From positions 1-53,872 of the forward strand of contig CAINMH010000012.1 in the NCBI GenBank assembly GCA_903850745.1: 53,872 nucleotides of DNA. The letters run 5' to 3'. Below the pieces are notes generated by a model. The model saw only the letters and a program-made list of their open reading frames with translations, was not told the DNA's origin and did no database searches. The translations under genes were made by a program, and so were the position numbers. How positions within the stretch are numbered: position 1 is the stretch's first letter; every line of letters begins with the position of its first letter. Shown in pieces: positions 5,842 through 41,782 of the stretch. The stretch comes from an uncultured bacterium. GTDB lineage: Bacteria; Actinomycetota; Actinomycetes; S36-B12.

Positions 5842-6783
5842 ATGAGGCCGTTTAACAATGTCCGGCTTGATGCCCGGTTCTTTGAAGCACCTCAGTCACA
5901 GGATTTTTGTGATGCGCTGGCGCCTTCTAGTGGGTTTATACAAGGCTCCGTCAACCAGGGTGCGGTCATTCGAGTTTTACTCCGAGAGGCGCTTTCTGCG
6001 GGCGTTGCCAGTTTGGAGACCGAACAGGTATCGAGCGGGTCAGAAGGTTGGATGTCGATATCCATAGACTTCAAGAAACGAGAGATTCGGTCCTTGTCTT
6101 GGGTGCTCGTGCGTGGTGACAATGATTGGACGTCTGAACGGCGTTGGCCATGGAACTCGCTGAAAAGTGTCTTTGAGCCTTGGAGTGAGTTTGTCGCCAA
6201 GCAGGAAGACGCGCGCGACCTTGTACATGACTCTATTGAAAGCAATTGGCAATACAGCGCCATGAACACAGGCATTCCCCAGCCTCGCTCTCTGCTCGAA
6301 TGCAATTTTGCGGACGATGAAGATCCGGTTGTGAGGCGGTATCTCGAGTGCCTGTGCGAAGCATTCACTGACTACAACACAGACGTCTTGTGGGGGGTGT
6401 TTCAGGACGAGGACTATGTCGCATCAGTTGAAGAAGCGGATCGACTTGAGGTCGTGCGGACCGCACTGTGCGACCTCGTAGCTCAACTTGGTGACGCATC
6501 TTTGGACACATTGATCAAGTTGTCGAATGACTGGGGTATGGACTGTGAAATCGACGGAGCTGCTCGCTGGACGTATTCGTGTCGCAAGCCATTTCCAGAC
6601 GCCATGGTTTGGGATCAACTTCCGTGGGAACAACAGAAGTTTGTTCTTGAGTCCTGTGATCCATGGGTGGTCGGCTTGGCTTGCTTGCTCCCCGATACAC
6701 ACTCAGAGATAATTGAGTGGGCGGCTACGTTTGAGGATGAGTTCGTAGCGCACATCGTTGCGAATCGTCTCAGTCGTCCGTGA
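5842..6783 (+). CDS. Hypothetical protein
   Basis: 313-aa acidic ORF, coding-like, 3' end overlaps the convergent nuclease/helicase gene by 14 bp. Confidence 0.6.
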   Translation: MRPFNNVRLDARFFEAPQSQDFCDALAPSSGFIQGSVNQGAVIRVLLREALSAGVASLETEQVSSGSEGWMSISIDFKKREIRSLSWVLVRGDNDWTSERRWPWNSLKSVFEPWSEFVAKQEDARDLVHDSIESNWQYSAMNTGIPQPRSLLECNFADDEDPVVRRYLECLCEAFTDYNTDVLWGVFQDEDYVASVEEADRLEVVRTALCDLVAQLGDASLDTLIKLSNDWGMDCEIDGAARWTYSCRKPFPDAMVWDQLPWEQQKFVLESCDPWVVGLACLLPDTHSEIIEWAATFEDEFVAHIVANRLSRP

Positions 6784-9700
6784 CTGTGAGACCAAGAAAC
6801 GCACCCAAATAACTCAAGCCCTCGACGCTTCCGGGCGCGATCGCACGCAAGGCGGGGGAGTGGACGAGAAGACAGGCCCATTTTCCTCGGCTGACCGCGA
6901 CGTTTAAGCGGTTGGGCGAGAGTAGGAAGTCGATGCCCCGCGGTAAGTCTTCGCCGCTTGAGGTTGCCATGCTGACGATGACCACGGGTGCCTCACGGCC
7001 TTGGAACTTGTCCACCGTGCCCACGGGAACGCTGGTGAGACCCGATTCGGCTAGCAGCCGGCGTATCAGTCGTACTTGAGCGTTGTAGGCGGCCACCACG
7101 ATGAGGTCATCTTCCGCTAGTGGCCTTGGCGCCAGTGCCACGTCATGTTTGGCGTCAATCCATGTTTGCCCGAGCAGCGACTTGGCAAGACGTACGACCT
7201 CGCGTGCTTCTTCGATGCTTGAGGTCGTGTTTCCCTCATGTGGCACTTGGATCGTGGTGATACCGGCTTCAATCGATTCGAGATGACGCATTGAAGTGAC
7301 CGGCGCCGCGTGAAGTCGCCCGTCGTACTGCAACCGCGACACCGGCGCGGCAAGAGCCGGATGCATGCGGTAGGTGGACGCGAGGAAGTAGCCGCGGTCC
7401 GCCGGCATGACTCGGTTACCGGCACTCACGTGCTCTAGCACAGAGAGTTGCACTGGTTCGGGGTGTATTGCTTGACTGACCTGAGGGAGTTGTTGGGGAT
7501 CGCCCAGTAGGAGCATGGTGCGCACGGTTCGTCCCGTTGCTATCGCGTTGGCCAACGAGAACTGCCCCGCCTCATCGATGACGAGCAAATCAAGACCCAA
7601 AGTGCGGACTGAGTCGCGGCAGAAAGTCCATGCGGTTCCACCGATGACAAATCCCTTGAATTGGCGATCGGTGAATGTGTCAAGTTTTTTGACGTGCCAT
7701 GGCATTGTCTGGTCTGCACCGTCTTGCGGTTCTTTGCCGATCGGTACGAGGGGATCGGTGTCATGCACGGCTTCGAGGAAGTTCTCGACCACCGCATGTG
7801 ACTGAGCCACGACACCAATGCGCCAGCCCTCTGCTGCGAGCCGCGCTACGACACGTGAGCCCACATAAGTCTTGCCGGTGCCAGGGGGACCTTGCACAGC
7901 AACATACGAATCTGCAGTCTTCAGAGCCATCGCGATGTCATCTACATCGATACCGGTGCGATGCAGGGGAGTGCGTCGACGGGGCGCATCGCCAAGCAGT
8001 AGATCGCCCCATGTCGATGGCGGAAATGCCTCATCTGATTGGCTCAGTCGATTGCAAACTTCTTGTGCGAGCTCGGTCAGTGCCTTCTTGAGCGCTCGGG
8101 TGTCGACGGGTCCACGAGGCAGCACGGCGATCGGGAGCGCGTCCCAGATCTCTTCCTCGGCCCCCGCAAGTTCTTCAACGACTATGTCGTTGCCGATCTG
8201 GACGATGGACGCTTTACGAAAGTTACGGGGCCCCTCGACGCGAAACGCGCCTAAAAGTGGCGTGTCGTAGAGCAGGAAGACAGGTCCGGGACGGTCGAAG
8301 ACGTCACGAGGCTCCTGCGTGTGAGAAGTTATGGTGACGGATCGACGTTCATTCCGCTGCCGACCGCTCTTCCCCCAGTCTGTCGCACTCACATGATCGG
8401 CGACGAAAATTGCCGGCGTGTCGCGCAGTGTGTCGTCGTCGGCCTCGCTCCACTCGAACATCTGCCACCACTGCGGACGATCCTCGCGCCGATGGAAGTT
8501 AACGGCCGCCGCGAGCAGTGCACGAGCACGCTGCTCCGGTGTGCGCTGCGCCAAGTCGTCGGGTACGCCGCTATAGAGTGCCTTGATGAGAGTCGCGATC
8601 TCTGGTGCGATGCCTGAATCTTCAGAGTCACCCTCGGGTGCGAACGGCGCCGCGCTGCGCGCCGCACTGCTCGTGCCCGGCAGCGCGCGCAGCCAGTCGT
8701 CGAGTTCCATCGTCGATAGGCAATCGACCTCGTTGTAGCGCTCGATTCTGTCTAGGCGTTCTTGAGCCTCGGGAAGATGCCCGTTGGCACGCTCCTGCAT
8801 GAAGAGGTCGTACTCAATGACTGAGCCCAGTGCGCTGACAACCGCATCGTCGTCTTTCGCGCGCGTGACGTTGTAGACCGGCTCGATGTACTTCAACGAG
8901 AGCGATTCTGTCGAGAAGCGCATGCCGTTCCTCACGGTTTTGAACAAGTCAACTAGGCGTTTTTCACTCACGATCTGATCAACCTCACTTTCGCGCACTC
9001 CATGCCGCTGCGCGAGAGAAAGTAGAGCCGCACGCTCATAGTTGGCGTAGTGATAGATATGCATCCCAGGATTCGCGGCACGACGGGCCATCACCTCGTC
9101 GACGAAGCTCACAAACGCGATGCGTTCTTCAGCCCGATTATGCGCAATGTAGGCATGGAACTTGAATTCACCGTTTTCAAGCCAGCCATAGCCAAACATG
9201 TATTCGAGACTGCGGCCGTCGAGCCATTGTGGGAAGCCTTCCATGTCGAACCAAATGTCACCCGCGTCGCGGGTGGGCATCGCGTCTAGGACATTTTGGT
9301 CAACAACCTCGAATAGGATTTCCACGGCCTGCTCGGCGCGGACCTGCAGGGCAGCTTGGGCGCGCAATTTCTCGAAGGTGTTCGTCGAGACTTTGTTTGG
9401 CCGGTTCGTTGGATCGACTGTTGCCAGTTGGTCGATTGTGGCTATCCCCGCGTCGATTAGTTTGTCCCGTGTGGTGGATCGGATGCCTTGTACGAGCGAG
9501 AGGTCGCGATCCTCACGACGGCCGTCCTTACACAGCGTCGCCCAATCGCAGCGAGTGCACGCTTCCCGTTGTGCTGCCCAGATCGGGTCTGGCAAGCCAC
9601 CCGCAGTTTCGAGACGATTTTGTAGGCGTTCGCGCACTTCCCGAGCCGCTGCCGCGAAGCGATCAGCATCGCCATGCCAGTTCTCGTCACGTGCGAGCCA

Positions 9701-10231
9701 CAGGTGCACCCGCTTAGGCATCGGCCAACCGAGTCGCACCAGAGCCTCGGCGTAGGCGCCGACCTGGAGCGCTGCAGTGCGCTTCGCTGATGTGGCGGAC
9801 TTTGCGTCAATGGGTTCGTAGACCGCGCGCCCATCGGCCCCACGCTCGATGTTGCCACTCTCGTCATAAGCGAGTGCGAGAAAGTCGACATAACCAAGGA
9901 AATCGCCCGTATAGAGAGTGGCCTGGTAGATGACCGGCACTTCATCGCACATGGCTTGCTCGGTGGCCTGCCAGGCGGCACGGTAGCTGGCATCGTCGTA
10001 GTTCACCGGTGTTGCGATGATGCGTACATCCCCTAGAGGCAACTCTTCGAGCCGGCGTCGCTCGTGCTGGCGGCCTTGCTCTGCGAGCAAATCGAGCATG
10101 GGGTCATCTACGCTCTCGTGCGCCAGATTGCCGAGGACGCGTGCCACATTCAACGCCACACGATGGTCGCACTCCAACTCCGCGACAAGGTCCTGCGGTG
10201 AGACTACCCAGCGCCCATCAATTCGTTGCAT
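6770..10231 (-). CDS. TM0106-family RecB-like nuclease fused to SF1 (DNA2-like) helicase
   Basis: CTRCDWATLCKDGR cluster; IWFDMEGFPQW RNaseH-like; Walker A VQGPPGTGKTYVGSRV; LLVIDEAGQFS; TVDKFQGREAPVVIVSM; LNVAVSRGKWACLLVHS. Confidence 0.9.
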   Translation of the reverse strand: MQRIDGRWVVSPQDLVAELECDHRVALNVARVLGNLAHESVDDPMLDLLAEQGRQHERRRLEELPLGDVRIIATPVNYDDASYRAAWQATEQAMCDEVPVIYQATLYTGDFLGYVDFLALAYDESGNIERGADGRAVYEPIDAKSATSAKRTAALQVGAYAEALVRLGWPMPKRVHLWLARDENWHGDADRFAAAAREVRERLQNRLETAGGLPDPIWAAQREACTRCDWATLCKDGRREDRDLSLVQGIRSTTRDKLIDAGIATIDQLATVDPTNRPNKVSTNTFEKLRAQAALQVRAEQAVEILFEVVDQNVLDAMPTRDAGDIWFDMEGFPQWLDGRSLEYMFGYGWLENGEFKFHAYIAHNRAEERIAFVSFVDEVMARRAANPGMHIYHYANYERAALLSLAQRHGVRESEVDQIVSEKRLVDLFKTVRNGMRFSTESLSLKYIEPVYNVTRAKDDDAVVSALGSVIEYDLFMQERANGHLPEAQERLDRIERYNEVDCLSTMELDDWLRALPGTSSAARSAAPFAPEGDSEDSGIAPEIATLIKALYSGVPDDLAQRTPEQRARALLAAAVNFHRREDRPQWWQMFEWSEADDDTLRDTPAIFVADHVSATDWGKSGRQRNERRSVTITSHTQEPRDVFDRPGPVFLLYDTPLLGAFRVEGPRNFRKASIVQIGNDIVVEELAGAEEEIWDALPIAVLPRGPVDTRALKKALTELAQEVCNRLSQSDEAFPPSTWGDLLLGDAPRRRTPLHRTGIDVDDIAMALKTADSYVAVQGPPGTGKTYVGSRVVARLAAEGWRIGVVAQSHAVVENFLEAVHDTDPLVPIGKEPQDGADQTMPWHVKKLDTFTDRQFKGFVIGGTAWTFCRDSVRTLGLDLLVIDEAGQFSLANAIATGRTVRTMLLLGDPQQLPQVSQAIHPEPVQLSVLEHVSAGNRVMPADRGYFLASTYRMHPALAAPVSRLQYDGRLHAAPVTSMRHLESIEAGITTIQVPHEGNTTSSIEEAREVVRLAKSLLGQTWIDAKHDVALAPRPLAEDDLIVVAAYNAQVRLIRRLLAESGLTSVPVGTVDKFQGREAPVVIVSMATSSGEDLPRGIDFLLSPNRLNVAVSRGKWACLLVHSPALRAIAPGSVEGLSYLGAFLGLTVTDD

Positions 10232-12932: not shown

Positions 12933-13094
12933 ATGTCTGAGAAAAAGAAGCAAGAGTTGAAGGTTGTATCGACGCCCAAGGCACCGGCTCGTATGACGGA
13001 CGAAGAAATCATGGCTTGGGCCCAGGAGGCTTGGAAGCACTTGGTGAAAGACATGCAGCCTGAGCCGCCTGACCCCGAAAAGGAATCCAAATGA
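12933..13094 (+). CDS. Small hypothetical protein (53 aa)
   Basis: RBS-like gggagg upstream; MSEKKKQELKVVSTPKAPARMTDEEIMAWAQEAWKHLVKDMQPEPPDPEKESK; ATGA overlap with next ORF; below the ORF-track cutoff. Confidence 0.55.
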   Translation: MSEKKKQELKVVSTPKAPARMTDEEIMAWAQEAWKHLVKDMQPEPPDPEKESK

Positions 13095-13603
13095 GCGAAA
13101 AGAAGCGCGTTAGTTCTCCGACCGAGGTCTACAACCAATGGGTCAAGGCGAATGCTGGGATGGACCCTATGCAGCCAACCGACGAGCAAGACGCGGATTA
13201 CATGAAACGGCTGGTCGAAGCCGACCCCAGCATCACCGGCAAAGGATGGGCTGAAGCGGTGGCGGAGATGAGTGAAGAAGAGCACGCCGAGCTGTTACAA
13301 CGTCCCGAATACTGCGGAGTGAACCCCGCCACACCAGATGCGGAAGCGGCAATCTCAGATCGGATCACTTGGGGTGTTCAGACCGCGGAATCAATGCTCC
13401 GCAGGCAGGCTGGGGCGACCTTCGAATTGGTATCTCCACTCGGCCCTGTCACCGTACGAGACCGGGCGGGCGAGCTAGTGGCCACCTTCACCGAAGACGG
13501 CTGGACCGAGTCAGATGGGTCAGTGCATTTGTGGAGCAACATTCGCGAGGGCGGACCCCACGCGATTGGACAATCCATCATGCGCAAGTACCTCAGAGAT
13601 TGA
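13091..13603 (+). CDS. Hypothetical protein, partner of the preceding small ORF
   Basis: MSEKKRVSSPTEVYNQWVKANAGMDPMQPTDEQDADYMKRLVEADPS...; translationally coupled start. Confidence 0.6.
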   Translation: MSEKKRVSSPTEVYNQWVKANAGMDPMQPTDEQDADYMKRLVEADPSITGKGWAEAVAEMSEEEHAELLQRPEYCGVNPATPDAEAAISDRITWGVQTAESMLRRQAGATFELVSPLGPVTVRDRAGELVATFTEDGWTESDGSVHLWSNIREGGPHAIGQSIMRKYLRD

Positions 13604-13614
13604 CGCCGCTAAGG

Positions 13615-16380
13615 CTAAGAGCGGTAAACGCGCAAGTCGTGAGTCAGGGCCTTGACTAGGCCTGGCGGAATTGCAACGCGCTCCGCGATTTGGTCTGTGC
13701 CAGATTCGGAGAGATCCTCTTGCTCACCCATCACAATATTGAACCAACGAGCCCGATCAGTGACGACCTTGTATGTCTTCTCATCCTGAAGTCCAGTCGT
13801 GTATGGCTGGTATATCTCGATGGGTGATCCAATGATCTCGGATCGGCTTCCAATGCGGTCCACCCGACCGTTTCTCTGCTCAAGGGAGCTCGGGTTCCAA
13901 TCGAGATCATGATGAATTACCGTTCGGCACTCCCAATGCAGATCAACGCCCTCACTTAACACCGGACTCGCAATGAGAACCTCGGGGAAGAATGGCATAT
14001 TGAATGCAGTGACAAGCACTTCGCGCGTCTCCTGCTTTACGCCACCATTGGCAAGCCGCACATTGGGGAGAACCATGGTCTTATGTGTGTCGCCTTCGGC
14101 GGAGAGCAAAGTGGTCATCGTGCGACCGGTTTTGTATTCGTCAAGCGATTTGAGAACCTGAGCGCGACGCTGGTCGGGGAGCTTCGCGAGACGTTCTAGG
14201 AATCGCTCAAGGCGGTCTCGCAAGGGCTCGCTCCCGCCATCGTCACCTCGGAGTGCGGCGAGAAGTGCATCGCCATCTTGCCCGTGCGGCAATACGTAGC
14301 GCACGATAAAGGACTCTGTCCGAAGGAAACCGCGGACTACGTCCCCAAACAACTCCGACTCCTCAGGAGTGAAATTCATGGGGCGGCACATATCCAGCAA
14401 GAGAGCATCAATCTCTCTTCGCGTACGAGAGTCAGAGTCAAGAGAGTTAATCGCGATGCGCTTGAGTCTTTCCGAAATCGCTACTGAATCACTCGGGTCG
14501 ATATTGAGCAATCGGGCGGCGTCGTCGAAGATCCGGCGCTCAATGGCCGCTGACACCTCTCGCCGGAGAGCTTTCCCAGTTTCGCGATAGAAGCAGAAGA
14601 TGAGGACCTTCTCTCCAGCAGCCCAGGCCCTGACGGTTCGATCGACAGTTGCTGCGACTTTGGGGTGCACTGGGGTGCCGGGTTCGCGATCGCGAGGAAG
14701 CGCCTTTTCAATCCGGTCCAGGTACCACGCGAGATCGGGGTCATGTTCTAGCTGCCCGGGAGAGTCGTCACCGTCCACGTCGAGGCGACCCTCTCGCGTG
14801 AATCGGTACGCCTCAAACGAGGAGGCAAGGCCCTCAGCAAAATGGGCGCGCGCCGATGAGCCTCTCCTATTGTTCTCGGCCACGATAGTTCGGGCTCGAG
14901 CTGCAATGAGGAATGGAAAGAGTGCATCAGACGGGATATTCAGCCCGACTTCGGGATTTCCTTGATCGCGGATTGCTTCCCCCGGGAGTACAACTCTTCG
15001 AGTCGATCGATCGTCACGAACGTGGCGTATGATCCACGGCGCAAGGAGTTTCTGTGTCTTCGCGCAATCGCGCACCAGTCTTGAGACATCAGCTCGCGCT
15101 TCACTCACCCGGCCATTTGTCGTCGTGAGAACTCCCATTTTCTCATCCCACCACGAATCAGGTACCTCCCCCAGATCTGAAGGAGTGAGCCGTCCCCAAG
15201 CACGTTCGAAGAGCTTGGCAGATTCCTGATATCGGTCCAATGCTGAGGCTAGAGACGTGAGAGTCCCGTTGAACTCTGTAGCAGCTGCAGCGTTGGGCCA
15301 GTTGATTCCGTTAAAGCGTTCTAGCACGCTGATGAGTTCTTGATGACCTAGCTGAAATGGAGTGGCCGTCAGGAACAGCATTCGATCAAATTTGCCCGCG
15401 AGGGCCCCACCTGAGTGCAGAGCCTCGGCGTCACCCACACCCTCTGGGGTGGTGAAGAGCCGAGCAACTCGGGTGTGGTGGCGAACGTGATGCGCTTCAT
15501 CCAGGATCAAAAGTGGAGAGTGAATTGAGGCATGGCCGATGGCGCCATTCCATACATCTTGAATCGCAGCAATCAATTCAGGTTTGATTCTCTTGAGTCG
15601 CCTATCAATGTTTGGGCTTTGGTTCAGCGGTAGAGATCTCAGTACCTCCCGGAGAGGCGCGAGAGACACACCGCTGTCTTTGATCATGCTCGGGAGGCGA
15701 AGGAAAACCGGATCATCGTCCAGTTGTGGACCCTTTTTCCGAGAGTTCCAAAGGTCCTTCCATTCCGAGATTGGTGTTTCCAGTAAGAGCAGGGTCGTGT
15801 CCTCGTCGAAGTTGTTTCGTAGGAGAGAAGAAGCCCAGCGGGCAAAAGCACTCTTTTGCCGCGAAAGTTGAGTCCGGTGAAATGCCGCCTTAATGATGGC
15901 GAGTCGAGTGAACGGATCATCGACCTGACGCGTTAGTGCCCCGTGGGCGACAAACGCGATGTCAGTCCGTGAATCATCAAAGAGACGAAGAAAGTCAGCG
16001 GGCTTCTCCACAGTGTGATCAGTCGCGACCAGTCCGTGTCCCTTTGGTAAGCAATTTTGCTCGAAGGTGACCCACTCCAGCGGCCACTTAGTCTTCAAAG
16101 CAGGAGGGACCATTACGACTACCGGACTTTTGCGACCGGTCGAAAGCGCGACCGACGCTGCTACAGCAAGTGCGACGAAAGTCTTCCCGAGCCCGACCTC
16201 ATCAGCAAGTACTAATCCCGGCTGTTCCTGAAGACGCGTAATGATGGCCTGTGCCGTCTGTGTTTGGCGCGCAGCGTCCGCGGCACTGATCGCATCACTA
16301 CCACCAAGGGTGATCTCGGGCCGCCATGCGAAGCGGGCGGCTTGGTTACGAGGCATGGAGCGCCACGCTTTCCCGGACAT
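13615..16380 (-). CDS. SNF2-like/DEAH superfamily 2 helicase (candidate defence operon gene 3)
   Basis: LVLADEVGLGKTFVALAVAAS; LLILDEAHHVRHH; LFLTATPFQLG; VLIASPVLSEGVDLHWECRTVIHHDLDWNPSSLEQRNGRVDRIGS. Confidence 0.92.
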   Translation of the reverse strand: MSGKAWRSMPRNQAARFAWRPEITLGGSDAISAADAARQTQTAQAIITRLQEQPGLVLADEVGLGKTFVALAVAASVALSTGRKSPVVVMVPPALKTKWPLEWVTFEQNCLPKGHGLVATDHTVEKPADFLRLFDDSRTDIAFVAHGALTRQVDDPFTRLAIIKAAFHRTQLSRQKSAFARWASSLLRNNFDEDTTLLLLETPISEWKDLWNSRKKGPQLDDDPVFLRLPSMIKDSGVSLAPLREVLRSLPLNQSPNIDRRLKRIKPELIAAIQDVWNGAIGHASIHSPLLILDEAHHVRHHTRVARLFTTPEGVGDAEALHSGGALAGKFDRMLFLTATPFQLGHQELISVLERFNGINWPNAAAATEFNGTLTSLASALDRYQESAKLFERAWGRLTPSDLGEVPDSWWDEKMGVLTTTNGRVSEARADVSRLVRDCAKTQKLLAPWIIRHVRDDRSTRRVVLPGEAIRDQGNPEVGLNIPSDALFPFLIAARARTIVAENNRRGSSARAHFAEGLASSFEAYRFTREGRLDVDGDDSPGQLEHDPDLAWYLDRIEKALPRDREPGTPVHPKVAATVDRTVRAWAAGEKVLIFCFYRETGKALRREVSAAIERRIFDDAARLLNIDPSDSVAISERLKRIAINSLDSDSRTRREIDALLLDMCRPMNFTPEESELFGDVVRGFLRTESFIVRYVLPHGQDGDALLAALRGDDGGSEPLRDRLERFLERLAKLPDQRRAQVLKSLDEYKTGRTMTTLLSAEGDTHKTMVLPNVRLANGGVKQETREVLVTAFNMPFFPEVLIASPVLSEGVDLHWECRTVIHHDLDWNPSSLEQRNGRVDRIGSRSEIIGSPIEIYQPYTTGLQDEKTYKVVTDRARWFNIVMGEQEDLSESGTDQIAERVAIPPGLVKALTHDLRVYRS

Positions 16381-18385
16381 ACTCGTGTAGCTCTGAGCCT
16401 GAAGGCAGCGGTGGGAGTCGGTCGTAGGCAGCCTGCCACCGGGATTGCATCACGCTCTTTGCGTTGGATACAGCCGTCGCATCGAGGCCTTGCACTGCGG
16501 TTGCCCACTCAACTCTGTGTAGCGTGATCTGAATTTCTGCCAGGAGGAAGTGCGCAAGCTCGAGAGGCAAATCCTCGGCCTCGAACTGGTTTACCCAGCC
16601 CTCAGCTAGGCGGGCAGGGGAGATAACTCCTGTTAGGCGCCATGACAGTGCGGCTCCAGTCGGGCAGGGGCGCGATAGCTGTCGACGAAGTGTGTCCAAG
16701 GCCCGCCCGTAGGTCGTCATTCGGCGTAGGAGCGCTCGCGAGTCGTCGTAGGCTCTCAGAGGATCTAGAAGCAAATTTGATGTGGAGGCGTGTTCGTTCG
16801 AGTCCCAGCTTTCGAGGAGGCGCTCGAAAGTGATCGAAGGATCGACTCCTCGCAACGACAGAGCTTGAATGATTAGGTCGATGGGAATTGCCCTCAGTCG
16901 ATCATCAAGTGGCAGGTCAGCAGGCTCAGCCACGTTAATGATCCAATCGGCATGCTGCTCATGCCCTTTCGGGTCTGTCCACTTCACGATCAGGCCGAGC
17001 GGAAGGGCTTCACCATTTGCGACTTGGTAGCGCACCACGTCTCCGGAAATTGAAGAGTCCGAACTCGCGACCATCAATTTGTTATCCGTGGTCTTAGCTT
17101 CCCACCATTGAGGTAATTCTTGGGGATCGACCTTCATGAGAAGCTCCCAGCGCTCACCACATCGTGAAAGAACAGCACTTAGGAAAGCTGCCGGCAGGAT
17201 TGCGCCAGACGGCTCATCCTCTTGCTCATCGTCGAGGGGCCCAAACCGAACAGCATCCATATCGATGTGCTCTGAGTCGGGTAGGACCTTTTGGAGCGCT
17301 TTGCCCAGTGCGCTCGATTGAGGAGCGCCGAAGATTACGTTGAGTTCGATATTCCCAGCGACAGGGTTTAGGCCAAGGCCAGCTGAGGTCATGTTCGAGG
17401 ATCCGATCATGAGCGAGATCCATTCATCGCTCTCGACAAGCAACGCCTTTGCATGCAGTCGTCGAAACTCGTTGCCTGGATAGTCAGAGATGCCGTCCAA
17501 CTCGATCGTTATGCCCTGACGACAGGCTCGTTTAGGAAGACCATCAGGCGCATTGGTGAGCTGCCCAGCGTCGGAAACTCTAATTGGCACTGCGAGGTAT
17601 GCACTCGCTTCACCTGTGGCAGCCAGCAAGCCAGTGAGAGCACGAACCGCATCGTTCTTGCCCGCATCTTCGCGGTCCCAGTACGGAGACATCGCCGTGA
17701 GTCGTCGGGCTTTCGGACCCACCCAAGAATCTCGAAGGACGTCTAAGGCTGACTGTCCCGGTCGGGACGGCGCAAGAGTCACTCGCGCATCTGTTCGTGC
17801 AGGAGGCGCCACTTCAAGAATCCGCTGTTCTAGAAGATCCACCGCGGCGAGGGCCCTAGATTTCGGGCCTGTAGCTGTGACATCGTCTGGGACCAGCAAG
17901 ACTATGCGCCTCAGCTCCTCTGCGTAGTCATCCCAGAATTTCCTCGGGACTTGTCCGTTGGATTCGAGTTCGAAGGCGACCGCGATCTCCTGCTGCCGCC
18001 GGTATCCCGCCGGTGTGAGATTTGCGGATCCGATGATGATGCGTATGGAGTTCTCCCACATGAGCATCGCAGTCTTGGCATGGAGTAGACCGCCCTTGTG
18101 GACGACTGGAAGTACGTCCCAACGAAGATTGCGAGCCTCAACGCCTGCGCTACGGTCAATGATCGCGGTCGCTGTCACTTGAGCAAGGCACTCCTCTAGC
18201 TCATTGAGTTGCACCAGTGAAGAAGTGGAACCTTCTCCTAAGGCGACGCGCATGCCGAGAAAGCGTGCGAGGCAATCGTCACGAAAAAAGTCTGTATCGA
18301 AGGTGAAAGAGGTGGCCACTACGGCCATGGGTTGACCGGCTCCCTCGGGTGCCAACCAGTGGTCAAGAAGTCTCTGTTCATCCAT
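16346..18385 (-). CDS. Phospholipase D-like protein with two HKD motifs (candidate defence operon gene 2)
   Basis: LLHAKTAMLMWENSIRIIIGSANLTPAGYRRQQEIAV and RRLHAKALLVESDEWISLMIGSSNMTSAGLGL. Confidence 0.9.
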   Translation of the reverse strand: MDEQRLLDHWLAPEGAGQPMAVVATSFTFDTDFFRDDCLARFLGMRVALGEGSTSSLVQLNELEECLAQVTATAIIDRSAGVEARNLRWDVLPVVHKGGLLHAKTAMLMWENSIRIIIGSANLTPAGYRRQQEIAVAFELESNGQVPRKFWDDYAEELRRIVLLVPDDVTATGPKSRALAAVDLLEQRILEVAPPARTDARVTLAPSRPGQSALDVLRDSWVGPKARRLTAMSPYWDREDAGKNDAVRALTGLLAATGEASAYLAVPIRVSDAGQLTNAPDGLPKRACRQGITIELDGISDYPGNEFRRLHAKALLVESDEWISLMIGSSNMTSAGLGLNPVAGNIELNVIFGAPQSSALGKALQKVLPDSEHIDMDAVRFGPLDDEQEDEPSGAILPAAFLSAVLSRCGERWELLMKVDPQELPQWWEAKTTDNKLMVASSDSSISGDVVRYQVANGEALPLGLIVKWTDPKGHEQHADWIINVAEPADLPLDDRLRAIPIDLIIQALSLRGVDPSITFERLLESWDSNEHASTSNLLLDPLRAYDDSRALLRRMTTYGRALDTLRRQLSRPCPTGAALSWRLTGVISPARLAEGWVNQFEAEDLPLELAHFLLAEIQITLHRVEWATAVQGLDATAVSNAKSVMQSRWQAAYDRLPPLPSGSELHEYVRESVALHAS

Positions 18386-19775
18386 GGGTATCTGCCAAGA
18401 AAGATGTCATAGCGATGAACCGGTAGGGGTGCACAAAGGATTCGCGCCTTTCGGGTTCATCGTCGACCCTAAACATGTGTCGCACAGCCCACGTGCCGCC
18501 CACCTCGTCAAACCAGGAGCGCTTGCCGCTCGGAGCTTTGTTTCTCTGCACCAACCCGTGGCGAAATATCACCGTGCTAATCAGATTTTCGGGGCTAAGC
18601 GTTTCGTCGCCGAAGGCGCTGAATTCCCTCTCAAACGCCTGACCCAAACTCGGATCCGATCCCACTTCGGCAAGCCTCTCTAGTGCCAGGCGGGCTGACG
18701 CGTACTTTCCACGAATTTCCACAGCCGTCTGTCTTAGGGCTTCACTTTCGTTGATAGCTGAGAGACTCGGCGTGCTGCTTGGCGATGTGGTGCTCATCCA
18801 CCGGTAAGTGTCAAAAGCCCAGAGCAGGTCGCCCGCAAAGTCTTCAAATTTCTGCACCGCCGCCATACGGGCCGCGAGATTGACCGATGCATGTCGCATG
18901 ACCGTCTCAACCGCATCGAATTCGTAGTTGTCGGATTCGAAAGGATGATCTCGAAGGATCCCGAGTGTCTCCACGAAGGCGTTCGCATCTGACTCGTTTC
19001 GACTGAGTGCTGGGGGAGTGCTGAGTGCCTTCCGAAGTGAAACCCGCTCCTGCCGACTCATTCCAGCTGGTCTTGTGAGTGCGACAAGGTGCGGCAGAAA
19101 ATTGGTTTTGCGCTGTGCAAAGGTGTTTTGTCCTGCAACAAAGGCTTTGCGAGTCTCCTCGGCGAGCCAATTGAGAAATTCGCCACCCGGAGTGCCAGCA
19201 CGTCCGCTGAGAAGACCGTCAAGTTTGTGGTCGCGTTCAAGGGCCTCTATCAAGTCGCGGCCAGCTGGCAAAAGTCCGCCTTCACGATCCACCAATCCAA
19301 GCGCAACAGCGAAGGGCCGATAGACGCCATGAAATCCGAAGACCCGTGGGCCCTTCAGGTACCCGCCTGCGTTCAGCCGTTGCCCTACAGCGAGAGCGGC
19401 ATGCGCTTTTGCGATTCCAGGGATTCCAATCTCAGCAGACGCCGACTTATCGAGAGCTAGCGCTTCAACTGCCATTCGCTCGAAGGCAAGATCTGGGCTG
19501 TCCCCCCGTGCCCCCGCTTGAACTCCCTCGAGCCGAGGAGCCACCAATGCGCCGAGGCACATCGCACTGACAAATCGAATTCGTCGCATGCGAGCCGTCA
19601 TCGGGTCGGCATAAGTGTTGGCGAGCCGGTCAGCGATTGGGGCCATGCCGAGTGGATCTAGGACACCCTCATCTGAGAGTGGCGGATCGAAGGCAGACAT
19701 TGCCGGTAAAACTGCGAGGCCTTTTCGCACTTTGTCCCCCCACCCCGCTCTCAAGTGCATTATTGCCACGGTCAA
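18378..19775 (-). CDS. Uncharacterised protein, first gene of PLD/SNF2 operon
   Basis: 465-aa ORF overlapping the PLD gene by 8 bp; LDPLGMAPIADRLANTYADPMTARMRRIRFVSAMCLGALVAPRLEG N-terminal motif; no recognised catalytic site. Confidence 0.75.
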   Translation of the reverse strand: MTVAIMHLRAGWGDKVRKGLAVLPAMSAFDPPLSDEGVLDPLGMAPIADRLANTYADPMTARMRRIRFVSAMCLGALVAPRLEGVQAGARGDSPDLAFERMAVEALALDKSASAEIGIPGIAKAHAALAVGQRLNAGGYLKGPRVFGFHGVYRPFAVALGLVDREGGLLPAGRDLIEALERDHKLDGLLSGRAGTPGGEFLNWLAEETRKAFVAGQNTFAQRKTNFLPHLVALTRPAGMSRQERVSLRKALSTPPALSRNESDANAFVETLGILRDHPFESDNYEFDAVETVMRHASVNLAARMAAVQKFEDFAGDLLWAFDTYRWMSTTSPSSTPSLSAINESEALRQTAVEIRGKYASARLALERLAEVGSDPSLGQAFEREFSAFGDETLSPENLISTVIFRHGLVQRNKAPSGKRSWFDEVGGTWAVRHMFRVDDEPERRESFVHPYRFIAMTSFLADTHG

Positions 19776-24284: not shown

Positions 24285-27200
24285 TTAGGCGACGCCGACT
24301 GCTGTCGTGAGGGAATCGGACTGCCCGACTTTGTTTGAAGCCCACACGGAAACCGAATACGTTTTGGCGCTGGTGAGATTGGCGAATATGCAGGAGCGCT
24401 TCGAGATGTCTGCGGGCTTCGTGAGTGTCACGGTCTTGACTACTTTCCCGCCCGAGGACAGTTCGATCCGGTAGCCGTTAACTGGGAAAGCTTTTCCACC
24501 GTTAAATATTGGGGCGTTCCATGCCACCGCGATCTTTCCTACCGATGGCGAGATTGCGTTGAGGCTTGTCACGGGAAGTGGCGCACTGCCTGTCACTAGC
24601 AATGTGAGTGCGGTTGTGGCGACTGCGCCCTTACCTGCGATGGAGTAGGTACCGGATTTTGTTGCACACACTTTGAGGGTCACTTTGCCATTGACCGCTG
24701 CGCCGCTCAGTTTGCTTCCCTTGCACTTTTGTGTGGCACCCGCAGGAGGCGTGATCGTCACAGATACCCCTGTCGCGCGCGGAAGACCAAGAGCAAGGGC
24801 AGCCATCGCAGGAACTCGATCTTTCACGTTAACCGGTACCGACACCAACTGGTCCATGGTGGCCGTGAGCGTGTCTGGTACCTGGAGCCAAGGCATGTCC
24901 GCTAGCGCTACCTCAGTCACCGCTGCGGATAGAACAATGTTGCGTTGACGCTGCCACAAAATTCCGTCGCTGTAGATCACCGTGGCAACAGGGTCGCCAT
25001 TCGCGGAAAAGCCTCGAGCTTCAAAAGAACCATCAGCATCGGTGAGTCCTGAGGACTTCACTCCAGGGATGAAGAATGTGAAGCCATTTCTTGTTATTGA
25101 CTTCGTGAGCCCGCTAACCGTCACGGATGCACCAAGTATGGGAAGGGTTCCACCGGACGTGACTCGAACAACCCGCTCAACTCTTGAGTTCTCGGTCGGG
25201 ACGCGCAGGGTCAAGGCCGTATTCCCACTCGAGACGATGTCCCAACTCCCCGAGACCATCGCACCAGATGACAAGGTTGCTGCTTCCACTGTTACGCGGA
25301 CGGTGCCCGCAGGCAAACGGAAAAGATCCACATTGCCGAGCGCGGTGAATCCGTACTCAGCAGCAGACCGGAAGTCGCCATCGAGTGTGGCCCAGCTGAC
25401 TACCCCACCGGTTATCGCTGCCCCGTCAGAATCAAGGACCGTGAGACGTTGCGTCCGGGTGCCGGATGTTGCGGCGACCTCCGAAGGTGCTGACCACTCC
25501 GACGGGCCAACCCCGTTAACCGCAGCAGTGCGGAATTCATACACAGACGCTGAAGTTAAACTCCTGACTGTGATTGACGTCGCAGGCGACGGGTCATGGC
25601 TGAACGTAGTCCACGACATCTCACCACTCTTGCGATACTGCACTCGGTAGTCGGTAATCGGAGAGCCACCATCGCTCACGGGTGCAGTCCACGACACCTG
25701 CAGCGACGAACCTGTAGCGCTGGAAGCAATCACACGTGTGGGAGCGATCGTGGTGGCCAGCGTAGAGGTAGCGCTGGATGGGCTCGAGTAAACACCGGTA
25801 TCAACGGAGTTGACGGCCGCGACTTGAAACACGTATAAGGCACCTGAAGTTAAACCGGTAACCGTGATGGACGTCGAGGGTGACGGGTCATGGGTGAATA
25901 TTGACCACTGGTCTTCCGACGCGAGGCGGTATCGGACCCGGTAGTCCGTGATCGCCGCGCCACCGTCGTCTGCAGGTGCGGCCCAAGAGAGTTGCACTGA
26001 CGAACCAGTATCACCCGAACCAAGCACGTCTGTGGGGGCGCTTGGGGGATAGGCGGTAGCCGCCCATACTTCTTCGCAGGGACCATGGCGAACTGAGTTG
26101 ACTGCTGAAACGCAGAAAATGTAGTTAGTGGCCTGTTCCAGGCCAGTGACAGTGATTGAGGTCGAGGGTGACGGGTCATGGGTGAATATTGAGTATCCGC
26201 CTTCCGGAAGGCGGTATCGGACCCGGTAGTCCGTGATCGCCGCGCCACCGTCGTCTGCAGGTGCGGCCCAAGAGAGCTGCACTGAGGAACCAGTAGCACC
26301 CAAACGACGCACATTTCTTGGGAAATCCGGCGGAGAGAGGGTCTGCACCGCAACAGATGGATCAGAGAAGGCGCTGAGACTACCAGCTGAGTTGACTGCA
26401 GCAACGCGGAACACGAGTCGCATGCCGTCTTCTAAACCAGTGACCGTAATCGATGTCGCCGCCGAGTCGAGATGGCTGAATGTTGTCCAAGACAGGGGCC
26501 AATTAGAGAATTCACTAAATTGTACAAGGTAGTTATGGATCGGAGATCCACCGTCACTGGAAGGTGCAGACCACGACACCAGGACTGACGAACCGGTAGC
26601 GCCCGAGGCAATCACATTGGTGGGAGCGCCCGGCGTGGGTAGCGTATAGGCCGCGCTCGATGGGCTCGAAAACATGCCGGTATCAACCAAGTTGACCGCA
26701 GCAACCTGAAACACGTATGACGCCCCTGGAGTTAGACCGGTGACTGTGATGGATGTCGAATCCGAAGCTACATGGTTGAAGGTCGTCCAGGAATTCGCCG
26801 AGGCAAGGCGGTACTGCACTACGTAGTCGCTGATCGCGGCACCACCATCACTGGTGGGTGCGGTCCACGACAGCTGCAGCGAAGAGCTCGTCGCGCCAGA
26901 GGCACCCACATCTGTCGGCATACCCGGAGCGATCGCCAACGTGCGACTCCACGCACTTTGCGCGACCCGAGTCGCGGCTGTTAAGCCGGTGATACCCGAC
27001 ACCGGCACCGGGACCGGGACGGGACTAGGGGTGGTCAGGCTGTTACCTAACTGTCCTGAGCCGTTGTTACCCCAGCATTTCGCGGTGCCGTCCGCCATCA
27101 CCGCACACGAATGAGATCCCCCGGTGCTCACGCTGAGTGCGGTTGCGGCAGGAGTCAACCCGGTGGTACCCGACACCGGCACAGGGACGGGACTGTCGTC

Positions 27201-30200
27201 GGTCGAGTTGTTACCCAACGGGCCGTAGGTGTTGTCGCCCCAGCATCTAGCGGTGCCGTCCGCCATCACCGCACACGAATACAGTTGCCCGGTGCTCACG
27301 CTGACTGCGGTCGACGGGGGTGCCGACCCGGTGATACCCGACACCGGTACTGGGGCGAGACTTTCCGTGGTCGAGTTGTTGCCCACCTGGCCATTGTTGT
27401 TGTTACCCCAGCATTTCGCGGTGCCGTCCGCCATCACCGCACACGAATGAGAGCCTCCGGCACTCACGCTAAGCGCGGTCGTGCCGGGAGATAATCCGGT
27501 GATACCCGACACGAGCACCGGGCCTGGGACGGGACTGTACGTCTTCGAGCCGTTTCCCAATTGGCCAAAGCTGTTATAGCCCCAGCATTTGGAGGTGCCA
27601 TCCGCCATCACTGCACACGAATGAAGGGAACCGGTGGTCAGGCTGAGCGCGGTGGTGGCGGGTGTCAGCCCGGTAATACCCGACACCGGCACTGGGACAA
27701 GTCTGTTTGTGGTCAAGCCGTTGCCCAACTGGCCGTAGTCTCCTCTGCCCCAGCATTGGGCCGTGCCGTCCGCCATCACCGCACACGAATGATCAACACC
27801 GGTGCTCACGCTGAGCGCGGTCGTGGCAGGAGTCAACCCGGTGATGCCCGACACGGGTACTGGGACAGGGCTGTTTGTGGTCGAGTTGTTGCCCAATCGG
27901 CCGTAATAGTTGCGACCCCAACATTTCGCGGTGCCGTCCGCCATCACCGCACACGAATGAGAGCCTCCGGCATTCACGCTAAGCGCGGTCGTGCCGGGAG
28001 ACAACCCGGTGATACCCAACACTTGGACAGGGACAGGGCTGTCTGTGGTCGAGTTATTGCCCAACTGTCCGTAGTTGTTGGACCCCCAGCATTTTGCGGT
28101 TCCATTCGCTATCACCGCACACGAATGATAGGTACCGGCATCGATTGTGGGTTCTTGTCCGCTCCACACACTTGAGCCAACCGTGTTCACTGCAGCCACC
28201 CGGAATACGTATGTCGCCCCAGGCATCAAACCTGTAACCGTCACTGTCGTCGCAATCGATGGCGACACTTCCGCGAATGTCGACCAGGACAATTCACCGA
28301 CCTTGCGGTACTGGATCGCGTAATCGCGGATCGCTGAATCACCATCATTGGCAGGAGCGGTCCACGACACCTGCAGCGACGAACCCGTCGCACCTGAAAC
28401 GCTCACTCCAGTCGGCATACCGGGTGCGTTCGCCAGTGTGGAGGCGGCGCTCGATGGGCTCGAAAACATGCCGGTATCAACCAAGTTGACCGCAGCAACC
28501 TGAAACACGTATGACGCCCCTGGAGTTAGACCGGTGACCGTGATGGATGTCGAATCCGAAGCTACATGGTTGAAGGTCGTCCAGGAATTCGCCGAAGTAT
28601 GGCGGTACTCGATCGTGTAATCCGTGATCACGGCTCCACCATCACTGCTCGGTACGGTCCACGACACCTGCAGCGACGAGCCTGTAGCACCTGAGGCGCT
28701 CACACCGATAGGAGCACCTGGGGCGATCGCAAGCGTTCGACCCCAAGCTCCTGGCGCGACCCGAGCCGCGGCTGACAGCCCGGTGATACCCGACACCGGC
28801 ACTGGTACGGGACTGTCATCGCTCGTGCCGTCACCTAACTGGCCGTTACCGTTGTTGCCCCAGCATTTTGCGGTGCCGTCCGCCATCACCGCACACGTAT
28901 GTTGGAAACCGGCAGTCACGCTGACGGCGGTCGTGGAGGCCGTCAACGCGGTGATTCCCGATACTGTCACTGGGACGGCACTTTGATAAGTGAAGTCGTT
29001 ACCTAGTCGGCCGTAGATGTTCAAGCCCCAGCACTTTGCGGTGCCATCCGCCATCAGCGCACAAGAATGAGAATGACCAACGCTCACGCTTACTGCGGTC
29101 GCAGCGAGGGTCAACCCGGTGATACCTGAAACCGACACAGGGACAGGCGAACTCGTGGTCGTCCCATTGCCTAATTTTCCAGTAACGCCATCACCCCAAC
29201 ATTTTGCAGTGCCATCCGCCATCACCGCGCACGAATGGTAGTAACCGGTACTCAGGGTGACTACGGTCGACGCAGGCGTCAACCCGTCAATGTCTGACAC
29301 TGGCAACGGGACGGGGGTATAGGTCGAGTTGAAACCCAACTCGCCCTGGATGTTGCTTCCCCAGCATTTCGCGGTGCCGTCCGCCATCACCGCACATGAA
29401 TGAAAGTTACCCGTACTCACGCTGATTGCTCTCGTGGCGGGCGTCAACCCGTCGATACCCCACACTGGCACGGGGATAAGGCTGTTTGTCCCCGAGCCGT
29501 CGCCCAACTGGCCGGAGGCTCCTCTGCCCCAGCATTTTGCGGTGCCATCCGCCATGACTGCGCAAGAGTGAAAGTCCTTGGTGCTCACACTGAGCGCGGT
29601 CGTGGCGGGAGTCAACCCGGTGATACCCGCCACCGGTATAGGGACGGAACTGTTTGTGGTCGAGTTGTCACCCAGCTGACCCCAATTGTTCAAGCCCCAG
29701 CATTTTGCGGTGCCGTCCGCCATCACCGCACATGAATGCAGAAGCTCGTCACCTGTGCCTACGCTGATGGCGGTCGTGGCGGGTATTAGCCCGGTGATAC
29801 CTGTCACTGGCACTGGAACAAGACTGTCCGTGGTCGAGTTGTTATCCAACTGGCCGTAGTAGTTGCGACCCCAGCAATGGGCGCTGCCATCAGCCATAAC
29901 CGCGCATGAACCAACGGCCCCGGAGTTGAGCATGGGTTCCTGCCCACTCCACATGCTCGTGCCTTCCGTGTTCACTGCAGCCACCCGGAACACATACGTC
30001 GAGCCGGGCGTCAAACCTGTAACCGTCACTGTCGTCGCAACCGATGGCGACACTTGGGTGAACGTTGACCAGGACAGTTCACCGACCTTGCGGTACTGGA
30101 TCGTGTAATCGGTGATCGGAGAACCACCATCGTTGGCAGGTGCGTTCCATGACAACTGCAGCGACGAGCCTGTGGCTCCGGAAGTAACCACGAGGGTCGG

Positions 30201-30323
30201 TGCTCCCGGGACTGAGACGGTCTGCACGGTGGTGGCGCTGGAAACAGAAGGGGCACTGAGAGACAGGAAGACAACCGTCAGAGATAGGCAAGTAGGCGCA
30301 ATGACCCTGCGCAAAAAGTTCAT
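24285..30323 (-). CDS. Large secreted protein with Fn3 domains and two seven-repeat RCC1-type arrays
   Basis: Signal peptide MNFLRRVIAPTCLSLTVVFLSLSAPSVSSA; 14 copies of [HYG][ST]CA[VL][MI]A[DN]GTAKCWGxxxxGxLG in two sets of seven; about nine Fn3-type GSSLQ(L/V)SWxAP...YVFRVAAVN units. Confidence 0.9.
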   Translation of the reverse strand: MNFLRRVIAPTCLSLTVVFLSLSAPSVSSATTVQTVSVPGAPTLVVTSGATGSSLQLSWNAPANDGGSPITDYTIQYRKVGELSWSTFTQVSPSVATTVTVTGLTPGSTYVFRVAAVNTEGTSMWSGQEPMLNSGAVGSCAVMADGSAHCWGRNYYGQLDNNSTTDSLVPVPVTGITGLIPATTAISVGTGDELLHSCAVMADGTAKCWGLNNWGQLGDNSTTNSSVPIPVAGITGLTPATTALSVSTKDFHSCAVMADGTAKCWGRGASGQLGDGSGTNSLIPVPVWGIDGLTPATRAISVSTGNFHSCAVMADGTAKCWGSNIQGELGFNSTYTPVPLPVSDIDGLTPASTVVTLSTGYYHSCAVMADGTAKCWGDGVTGKLGNGTTTSSPVPVSVSGITGLTLAATAVSVSVGHSHSCALMADGTAKCWGLNIYGRLGNDFTYQSAVPVTVSGITALTASTTAVSVTAGFQHTCAVMADGTAKCWGNNGNGQLGDGTSDDSPVPVPVSGITGLSAAARVAPGAWGRTLAIAPGAPIGVSASGATGSSLQVSWTVPSSDGGAVITDYTIEYRHTSANSWTTFNHVASDSTSITVTGLTPGASYVFQVAAVNLVDTGMFSSPSSAASTLANAPGMPTGVSVSGATGSSLQVSWTAPANDGDSAIRDYAIQYRKVGELSWSTFAEVSPSIATTVTVTGLMPGATYVFRVAAVNTVGSSVWSGQEPTIDAGTYHSCAVIANGTAKCWGSNNYGQLGNNSTTDSPVPVQVLGITGLSPGTTALSVNAGGSHSCAVMADGTAKCWGRNYYGRLGNNSTTNSPVPVPVSGITGLTPATTALSVSTGVDHSCAVMADGTAQCWGRGDYGQLGNGLTTNRLVPVPVSGITGLTPATTALSLTTGSLHSCAVMADGTSKCWGYNSFGQLGNGSKTYSPVPGPVLVSGITGLSPGTTALSVSAGGSHSCAVMADGTAKCWGNNNNGQVGNNSTTESLAPVPVSGITGSAPPSTAVSVSTGQLYSCAVMADGTARCWGDNTYGPLGNNSTDDSPVPVPVSGTTGLTPAATALSVSTGGSHSCAVMADGTAKCWGNNGSGQLGNSLTTPSPVPVPVPVSGITGLTAATRVAQSAWSRTLAIAPGMPTDVGASGATSSSLQLSWTAPTSDGGAAISDYVVQYRLASANSWTTFNHVASDSTSITVTGLTPGASYVFQVAAVNLVDTGMFSSPSSAAYTLPTPGAPTNVIASGATGSSVLVSWSAPSSDGGSPIHNYLVQFSEFSNWPLSWTTFSHLDSAATSITVTGLEDGMRLVFRVAAVNSAGSLSAFSDPSVAVQTLSPPDFPRNVRRLGATGSSVQLSWAAPADDGGAAITDYRVRYRLPEGGYSIFTHDPSPSTSITVTGLEQATNYIFCVSAVNSVRHGPCEEVWAATAYPPSAPTDVLGSGDTGSSVQLSWAAPADDGGAAITDYRVRYRLASEDQWSIFTHDPSPSTSITVTGLTSGALYVFQVAAVNSVDTGVYSSPSSATSTLATTIAPTRVIASSATGSSLQVSWTAPVSDGGSPITDYRVQYRKSGEMSWTTFSHDPSPATSITVRSLTSASVYEFRTAAVNGVGPSEWSAPSEVAATSGTRTQRLTVLDSDGAAITGGVVSWATLDGDFRSAAEYGFTALGNVDLFRLPAGTVRVTVEAATLSSGAMVSGSWDIVSSGNTALTLRVPTENSRVERVVRVTSGGTLPILGASVTVSGLTKSITRNGFTFFIPGVKSSGLTDADGSFEARGFSANGDPVATVIYSDGILWQRQRNIVLSAAVTEVALADMPWLQVPDTLTATMDQLVSVPVNVKDRVPAMAALALGLPRATGVSVTITPPAGATQKCKGSKLSGAAVNGKVTLKVCATKSGTYSIAGKGAVATTALTLLVTGSAPLPVTSLNAISPSVGKIAVAWNAPIFNGGKAFPVNGYRIELSSGGKVVKTVTLTKPADISKRSCIFANLTSAKTYSVSVWASNKVGQSDSLTTAVGVA
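26930..29940 (-). repeat. Near-identical DNA repeats encoding RCC1-type blades (two blocks of seven)
   Basis: ccagcattt(c/t)gcggtgccgtccgccatcaccgcacacgaatg recurs about every 155-165 bp; blocks at about 26930-28155 and 28730-29940, separated by Fn3-coding sequence. Confidence 0.9.
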
Positions 30324-40756: not shown

Positions 40757-40759
40757 AGC

Positions 40760-41782
40760 ATGAACCGATCAGGGGACCTCATGACAAGTAGCAGCGAGAA
40801 CGTTAATGATGCGGGCTGGGAAGCCTTCAACGTCTGGATCAGTGGTCAGACACTCAAGTCCGTACCCGTGCCCGGCTACCTGCCAGAGGCACACAGGACC
40901 GGACTAGACACGATCTACCGTCAACTGGCTGATGACGCATGGATCGCAAGCGGGAAAATGGGGGCGACAGTTCGTGCCATCGCCGCCGAGCCCGAAATCT
41001 CACGGCAAGAATTGACGGAAACTGTTTTCCACGGCAACTCTGGGTACTCCCTCCAGTTGACGTGGCCACTCGTCTCGATTTTCGCGGCGCAAATGCCCCG
41101 GAGAATTGCGACATCCACAGCGCAGGCCTATGCAGGTTGGATTGACCGAATCCGTCGTATCGCCATAGGCGGAATTAGTGGCGAAGAGGCGCTGGCGGTT
41201 GAGGCAATTCTTGACTTGGTCAGTGACGCGTATCTGCAGGCTGTCGGCCAGCACTCCTCAGAGGGAACGGAGATCGTGCGCGTTGCTGAAGGCGCGACGG
41301 AGCGCCTTGATACAAACCAGCCGGGCATCTACGTCTTCACGACCCCTACTTATCTGGCATACCCGCCGTTTGGCTGGAATACGGATGACATCTCCCGTCA
41401 CGACTTCCGCTATCTCAAGACCGGAAGCACGTCAGTGGACGTGACGGGAAGAATTCAGGCGGAGATTCGTCGTCAAACGGGCTTGCCTGAGCCCTATGTC
41501 GTCGTCGCAACGTTCCGAGGTGTAACCCCAAATGCCGATTACTTGGCGATTGAACGATCCATCCATCTAATCCTCGGGGAAGCCCGCCATGGTCCGGAAG
41601 AGGATGGCACCAGACGCGGATCTGCTCGAGGTGCCGGCACGGAGTGGTTCATCACTCGCCTTCCCCTGCTTGTTGTGATTGCCCAGAGTCTTGGGCTTGA
41701 GTTGTCGATGGATGCGGAGTTCAAGACCAAGATCAACAACATGTTTGAAGAGTGCGACCTTCCAAACTGGCTTTTCTCCTGA
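40760..41782 (+). CDS. Protein with C-terminal GIY-YIG/T5orf172-like domain, linked to type I R-M operon
   Basis: GIYVFTTPTYLAYPPFG...FRYLKTGSTSVDVTGRIQAEIRRQTGLPEPYVVVATFRG...LAIERSIHLILGEARHG...GAGTEWFITRLPLLVVIAQSLGL; starts 3 bp after hsdM stop. Confidence 0.6.
   Translation: MNRSGDLMTSSSENVNDAGWEAFNVWISGQTLKSVPVPGYLPEAHRTGLDTIYRQLADDAWIASGKMGATVRAIAAEPEISRQELTETVFHGNSGYSLQLTWPLVSIFAAQMPRRIATSTAQAYAGWIDRIRRIAIGGISGEEALAVEAILDLVSDAYLQAVGQHSSEGTEIVRVAEGATERLDTNQPGIYVFTTPTYLAYPPFGWNTDDISRHDFRYLKTGSTSVDVTGRIQAEIRRQTGLPEPYVVVATFRGVTPNADYLAIERSIHLILGEARHGPEEDGTRRGSARGAGTEWFITRLPLLVVIAQSLGLELSMDAEFKTKINNMFEECDLPNWLFS

What the first reader, a model, noticed from the sequence alone, without database searches (positions are those of the whole stretch)
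13615..19775. Three-gene overlapping operon: unknown 465-aa protein, double-HKD PLD nuclease and SNF2-like helicase; candidate undescribed defence system
Seen: three minus-strand ORFs with overlapping ends (8 bp and about 35 bp) and no intergenic gaps. The middle gene keeps both PLD HKD half-sites (HAKTAML...GSANLT and HAKALLV...GSSNMT). The third has complete SF2/SNF2 motifs (ADEVGLGKT, DEAH, TATP, EQRNGRVDRIG). The first has no recognised catalytic site. Established: PLD nucleases and SF2 helicases are paired in known anti-phage systems such as DISARM (DrmC) and Mokosh. Inference: this operon lacks the DISARM methyltransferase/DrmAB genes and the large RNA helicase of Mokosh, so the architecture may be a separate system, with the 465-aa protein as a sensor or adaptor. 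It lies in a neighbourhood rich in other defence genes.
Basis: partly seen in the sequence, partly recalled or inferred. Interest (0 to 1): 0.78.

Follow-up and report, generated by a model that had tools for sequence, protein, structure and literature searches.

The report
Divergent Azaca-like three-gene defence operon
Three tightly coupled bacterial genes, found together in the same order in about 50 species from at least a dozen phyla, form a distant sister of the known Azaca anti-phage system (a helical protein, a predicted DNA-cutting enzyme and a DNA motor), so the kind of system is known but this branch is unnamed and missed by the detection models tested.

Summary
In detail: three overlapping minus-strand genes (A 18378-19775, B 16346-18385, C 13615-16380; overlaps 8 and 35 bp) encode an all-helical protein without a Pfam domain, a double-PLD protein and an SNF2-type helicase. 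A's start is probably GTG at 19730 (450 aa). The module is real and conserved. Baiting with A in 84,980 species found 52 loci in 12 named phyla. All carry B directly downstream, and 48 of the 49 loci long enough to tell carry C next. A, B and C distance matrices correlate at r = 0.94-0.96, and catalytic residues are invariant. It is not architecturally new. Azaca (ZacA = DUF6361, ZacB = PLD, ZacC = helicase) and PADLOC candidate PDC-M27 have the same composition and order, and all three proteins are remote homologues of theirs. But the branches are very distant, and PADLOC, Pfam and NCBIfam give the window's A no hit. Verdict: an unnamed third lineage of the Azaca/PDC-M27 kind, probably an anti-MGE nuclease-translocase; patchy (1 of 59 related genomes), low GC3, probably acquired horizontally. 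The PLD sites are HxK...N, without the canonical D; the closest solved fold is Tdp1. Defence activity is inferred, not shown.

The parts
18378..19775 (-). Gene A: all-helical protein, 465-aa ORF (probable true start GTG 19730, 450 aa); remote homologue of ZacA/DUF6361 and PDC-M27A; invariant YLxxPxVFGFxGVY block (residues 139-152)
16346..18385 (-). Gene B: double-PLD protein, 679 aa, two HxK...GSxN half-sites (residues 102-133 and 311-347) plus a beta domain and a C-terminal helical domain; homologue of ZacB and PDC-M27B; closest solved fold Tdp1
13615..16380 (-). Gene C: SNF2-type SF2 helicase/translocase, 921 aa; nearest PADLOC model PDC-M27C, then DrmD and ZacC; nearest solved structures RapA
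18378..18385 (-). A/B 8-bp overlap (suggests translational coupling; overlap or near-zero gap in all relatives measured)
16346..16380 (-). B/C 35-bp overlap (11 bp if C starts at Met9)

Best explanation
A mobile three-gene anti-phage/anti-plasmid module, an unnamed third lineage of the Azaca/PDC-M27 kind. Likely mechanism: C, an SNF2-type ATPase, binds and moves along double-stranded DNA. B, whose two HxK...N half-sites fold into one PLD active site, cuts the DNA. A, an all-helical protein with strictly conserved residues, assembles the complex or decides when B is released (sensor/adaptor). There is no methyltransferase in the core, so self/non-self discrimination must rest on DNA structure, state or modification rather than on self-methylation. 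Shown here: gene order, co-inheritance, conserved catalytic residues, homology to Azaca/PDC-M27, patchy distribution. Inferred: DNA cleavage, complex formation, A's role, protection against phages or plasmids.
For: Unit: 52 loci, all with B; 48 of 49 with C where the contig extends; overlapping or near-zero gaps; A/B/C distance matrices r = 0.956, 0.945, 0.937, with 0 of 2000 permutations as high. The reverse bait agrees: B's profile in 397 actinobacterial genomes finds full-length hits only in the window's genome and Gordonia, both with A and C. Kind: B matches ZacB in 42 of 42 members; C matches PDC-M27C and ZacC; A members match PDC-M27A (19 of 50) and ZacA (13 of 50), best E 3e-5; hhalign score 41.9 with the ZacA alignment and 44.0 with PDC-M27A against a best of 24.1 among 150 decoys; same order and sizes in real Azaca and PDC-M27 loci. 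Azaca is catalogued as a defence system with PLD and helicase parts (PMC10952713, PMC12278908, PMC10482375). Mobility: 1 of 59 related genomes; tree mixes phyla; GC3 0.58 against 0.70-0.79 in valS, folC and other genes downstream and 0.63-0.72 in nearer genes. Several relatives sit beside ZorD-, DrmD-, type IV restriction-, HNH- or WYL-like genes.
Against: No member of this lineage has been tested. No relative was found on plasmids or phages. Defence neighbours were seen in only a few loci, with no background rate, and the window's own immediate neighbours are not classic defence genes. A's homology to ZacA is remote: hhalign probability 53% for the ZacA alignment and 2-87% for single ZacA sequences.
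Confidence: 0.72

Rival explanations
1. A modification-dependent (type IV-like) restriction system: B and C are a split equivalent of SauUSI (PLD nuclease + SF2 ATPase), with A or B's beta/helical C-terminal domains reading modified phage bases. This is a sub-case of the best explanation.
For: B's profile weakly matches SauUSI (7clg, E 0.002, second half-site; PMC7913695). No self-methyltransferase in the core. One relative (L036) carries a SauUSI-like PLD-helicase gene directly after C.
Against: C is SNF2/RapA-like, while SauUSI's motor resembles HsdR (PMC7913695). No SRA or other reader domain was detected in A.
Confidence: 0.2
2. A DNA-repair module: B acts like Tdp1 on blocked 3' ends or DNA-protein adducts, with C as a RapA/Rad54-like remodeller.
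For: Best fold match of B is Tdp1 (Foldseek E 3.5e-11, probability 1.0, TM by target length 0.48); subthreshold Pfam Tyr-DNA_phospho hit, E 0.004; HxK...N without D, as in Tdp1 (the Tdp1 motif is from my own knowledge).
Against: Two-domain PLD folds in general resemble Tdp1; identity is 12-14%. Patchy, apparently transferred distribution and kinship with Azaca do not suit housekeeping repair.
Confidence: 0.1
3. A chance run of unrelated neighbouring genes, or a transcription-related RapA-like operon without a defence role.
For: C's nearest solved structures are RapA; the window's neighbours are not clearly defence genes.
Against: Order and coupling are conserved across at least 12 phyla, with matrix correlations of about 0.95.
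Confidence: 0.04

Closest known systems
Azaca (ZacABC; Millman et al. 2022 as cited in PMC10952713)
   Same: Three genes in the same order, similar sizes (about 400-430, 620, 1090 aa) and overlapping or nearly so; ZacB is a PLD protein, ZacC an SF2 helicase; ZacA remotely homologous to A
   Different: ZacA is DUF6361 (E 1e-54) and A is not recognised as DUF6361; the C proteins are separated by a very long branch (8.35); ZacC is about 170 aa longer
PDC-M27 (PADLOC-DB phage defence candidate)
   Same: Same three parts, order and overlaps in L077 (474, 674, 887 aa); nearest relative by profile score (C 134.6 bits against 50-66 for ZacC)
   Different: The window's A has no hit to PDC-M27A; only 19 of 50 relatives do, weakly; long branch in the C tree (7.47)
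DISARM
   Same: PLD nuclease (DrmC) and SNF2 helicase (DrmD) homologues
   Different: No methyltransferase, DrmA or DrmB in the operon
Type-2 BREX-related (DUF499/Hma) systems (PMC12839542)
   Same: HKD nuclease + Swi2/Snf2 helicase as effector
   Different: There usually fused in one protein and accompanied by a DUF499 ATPase, N6-MTase and DUF3780; none in this operon
SauUSI type IV restriction enzyme (PMC7913695)
   Same: PLD nuclease coupled to a translocating SF2 ATPase without a self-methylase
   Different: Single chain with an SRA-like reader domain and an HsdR-like motor
Mokosh
   Same: Helicase plus PLD in an anti-phage system
   Different: Different helicase type (MkoA/MkoC); no hit of C to Mokosh models among the 25 best shown; no DUF6361-like protein (own knowledge)

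Membership tests
Azaca | ZacA: DUF6361 (PF19888) protein as first gene | tested here: not met
   No DUF6361 or ZacA hit for the window's A; one of 50 relatives at E 0.083; 13 of 50 hit the ZacA model, best 3e-5; remote homology only, hhalign 41.9 vs decoy maximum 24.1
Azaca | ZacB: PLD protein as second gene | tested here: met
   ZacB model E 1.9e-18, 42 of 42 relatives; hhalign E 4.8e-12
Azaca | ZacC: SF2 helicase as third gene | tested here: met
   ZacC model E 7.9e-26; hhalign E 3.5e-12, though PDC-M27C and DrmD models score higher
Azaca | Helicase clusters with ZacC rather than apart from it | tested here: not met
   Own clade of 40, separated from ZacC by a branch of 8.35 changes per column (long-branch caveat)
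Azaca | Anti-phage activity | not testable with these tools
   Needs phage assays
PDC-M27 | PDC-M27A first gene | tested here: inconclusive
   No hit for the window; 19 of 50 relatives weakly; hhalign 44.0 vs decoy maximum 24.1
PDC-M27 | PDC-M27B and PDC-M27C, same order | tested here: met
   B E 2.6e-6, C E 1e-32 (best model for C); same order and overlaps in L077
DISARM | DNA methyltransferase plus DrmA/DrmB | tested here: not met
   The operon holds only A, B and C; the flanking ORFs examined are not these
Type-2 BREX-related (DUF499) | DUF499 ATPase, N6-MTase, HKD-helicase fusion | tested here: not met
   No ATPase or MTase in the operon; PLD and helicase are separate genes
Tdp1 | Tyr-DNA_phospho domain (PF06087) above its cut-off | tested here: not met
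   16.5 bits, below the 22-bit cut-off; fold similarity only

The most novel reading that the evidence does not exclude
A separate defence type whose helical A protein carries a new recognition function and whose Tdp1-like B acts on protein-capped or otherwise blocked DNA ends, so that the module targets DNA-end or adduct chemistry peculiar to invading elements rather than sequence or base modification.
Probability: 0.08. Interest if true: 0.75.

Novelty: new variant of a known kind. Interest (0 to 1): 0.45.

Why it matters
Azaca is listed in the literature as a system of unknown mechanism (PMC10482375). A third, deeply separated lineage in at least 12 phyla shows that the DUF6361-like/PLD/SNF2 triad is broader than the models tested detect, and it gives about 50 new sequences that fix the invariant residues of all three parts. 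That makes mutational tests of the mechanism direct, and detection tools such as PADLOC could be extended to cover it.

Tried and rejected
Plasmid, phage and viral-contig searches with A, B or C found nothing. PDC-M27A was absent from 297 actinobacterial genomes and found in 1 of 299 genomes of the phylum of a Cupriavidus relative. A fourth core gene was sought by clustering 479 neighbours: none exceeds 6 loci. A's AlphaFold model (pLDDT 88.6) has no PDB or viral fold match, and a profile of A finds no convincing solved relative. DISARM, Mokosh and Hma/BREX-related membership were rejected for lack of their defining genes. No Rfam match and no consensus promoter were found. No paper was found that describes the Zac proteins beyond list entries, and PDC-M27 is not named in the held library.

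Full report
WHAT IS THERE. Three minus-strand genes overlap by 8 and 35 bp. In transcription order: A (18378-19775), B (16346-18385), C (13615-16380). The next ORF downstream is convergent (13091-13603, +), so the operon probably ends there. A's likely start is GTG 19730: it follows a GGGGGA run and reproduces the family consensus start M-x6-LPxLS. The first 26 residues of the longer ORF have very low confidence in the model.

IT IS A REAL UNIT. A search of 397 genomes of the phylum gave one full-length relative of A (L002/L009, Gordonia), and its locus holds A, B and C in the same order, at 30, 35 and 41% identity. Using that pair as bait in 84,980 species found 52 loci (the Gordonia locus returns as L020). 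All have B next to A. C follows in 48; of the four without C, three end at a contig edge and one (L030) truly lacks it. Phyla by record title: 13 Actinomycetota, 13 Planctomycetota, 9 Pseudomonadota and nine others, with four loci unassigned. Junctions overlap or nearly touch in all measured loci (the largest overlaps come from mechanical start choice). Distance matrices of A, B and C over 33 genomes correlate at 0.94-0.96, with 0 of 2000 permutations as high. Because A was the bait, the reverse test matters: B's profile in 397 actinobacterial genomes gives full-length hits only in the window's genome and Gordonia, both with A and C; two further hits are partial and weak. The number is small.

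PARTS. B has two HxK...GSxN half-sites, with H102, K104, N122, E133 and H311, K313, N331, E347 invariant in 42 of 42; the canonical D position after K is variable. Its model (pLDDT 88.5) is closest to human Tdp1 among solved structures, with a beta domain (about 400-500) and a helical C-terminus. C has complete SF2 motifs, invariant or nearly so, and is nearest to RapA among solved structures. A is all-helical (pLDDT 88.6) with no fold match and invariant D30, R62, E99, Y139, the V145-Y152 block, E311, H406, Q410, W421 and R452. Such a set of invariant polar residues would also allow an enzymatic role, which I could not test.

WHAT KIND. PADLOC's best models for the window are ZacB (E 1.9e-18) for B, and PDC-M27C (1e-32), DrmD (7e-29) and ZacC (8e-26) among the best for C; A has none. 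Across the family, A members reach PDC-M27A (19 of 50) and ZacA (13 of 50) at up to 3e-5, and B members reach ZacB in 42 of 42. I fetched real loci of both: ZacA/B/C in L071, L072 and L074 and PDC-M27 in L077 show the same order and similar sizes. The family's profiles hit them with C at 2.8e-20 (Zac) and 3.7e-42 (M27), B at 1.8e-5 and 5.3e-9, and A at 4.5e-4 and 2.2e-7. HHalign scores of A were 41.9 with the ZacA alignment and 44.0 with PDC-M27A, against at most 24.1 for 150 neighbouring proteins used as decoys; single ZacA sequences scored 23 to 50. ZacA is DUF6361 by Pfam (E 1e-54), whereas A is not recognised as such. In a helicase tree the 40 relatives form their own clade, far from ZacC and PDC-M27C; the joins between clades are long-branched and unsure.

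WHY DEFENCE. The first argument is kinship with Azaca, which is catalogued as a defence system with a PLD part (PMC10952713) and a helicase ZacC (PMC12278908) and is listed among systems of unknown mechanism enriched in Actinobacteria (PMC10482375). Distribution is patchy (1 of 59 related genomes) and crosses phyla. The operon's GC3 is 0.58 against 0.70-0.79 for valS, folC and other genes downstream, and 0.63-0.72 for nearer genes. Some relatives sit beside ZorD-, DrmD-, type IV restriction-, HNH- and WYL-like genes, but no background rate was measured, and the window's own surroundings are only moderately defence-like (type I R-M at 35282-40756).

MECHANISM. Best supported: C moves on double-stranded DNA, B cuts it, A assembles or gates. 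The pairing of a PLD nuclease with an SF2 motor is established for SauUSI (PMC7913695) and proposed as the effector of Type-2 BREX-related systems (PMC12839542). There is no self-methyltransferase in the core, which leaves DNA structure or modification as the likely discriminator. All of this is inference from homology.

LIMITS. The genome scan was pattern-based, so 52 is a lower bound. The homology of A to ZacA is remote and rests on the decoy comparison plus shared gene order. Only one PDC-M27 locus was obtained. DefenseFinder could not be run, so whether its Azaca model would call this operon is untested.

Noticed in passing
6770-10231 (-): 1153-aa protein with an RNase_H_2 domain and an SF1 AAA_11/AAA_12 helicase; matches to Mokosh MkoA/MkoC models. 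Possibly another nucleic-acid-processing or defence gene.
   Followed up: partly
35282-41782 (+): Type I restriction-modification cluster: HsdR-like (35282-38053), HsdS-like (37885-39285), HsdM-like (39212-40756), then a 340-aa ORF without a PADLOC match.
   Followed up: partly
24285-30323 (-): 2012-aa protein built of repeated fibronectin type III domains and RCC1 repeats, presumably a surface or secreted protein.
   Followed up: no
L036:16442-19555; upstream regions of L018, L027, L028, L036: A SauUSI-like PLD-helicase gene overlaps the end of gene C in L036, and four relatives from different phyla share an SNF2 helicase plus a large methyltransferase-like gene upstream of the operon.
   Followed up: partly
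L030:9968-14500: The only relative with A and B but no C although the contig continues; possibly a decaying copy.
   Followed up: no
L025:8933-9901 and L023:1552-2511: WYL-like regulator 40-53 bp upstream of the operon in two Pseudomonadota relatives, as seen next to other defence systems.
   Followed up: no
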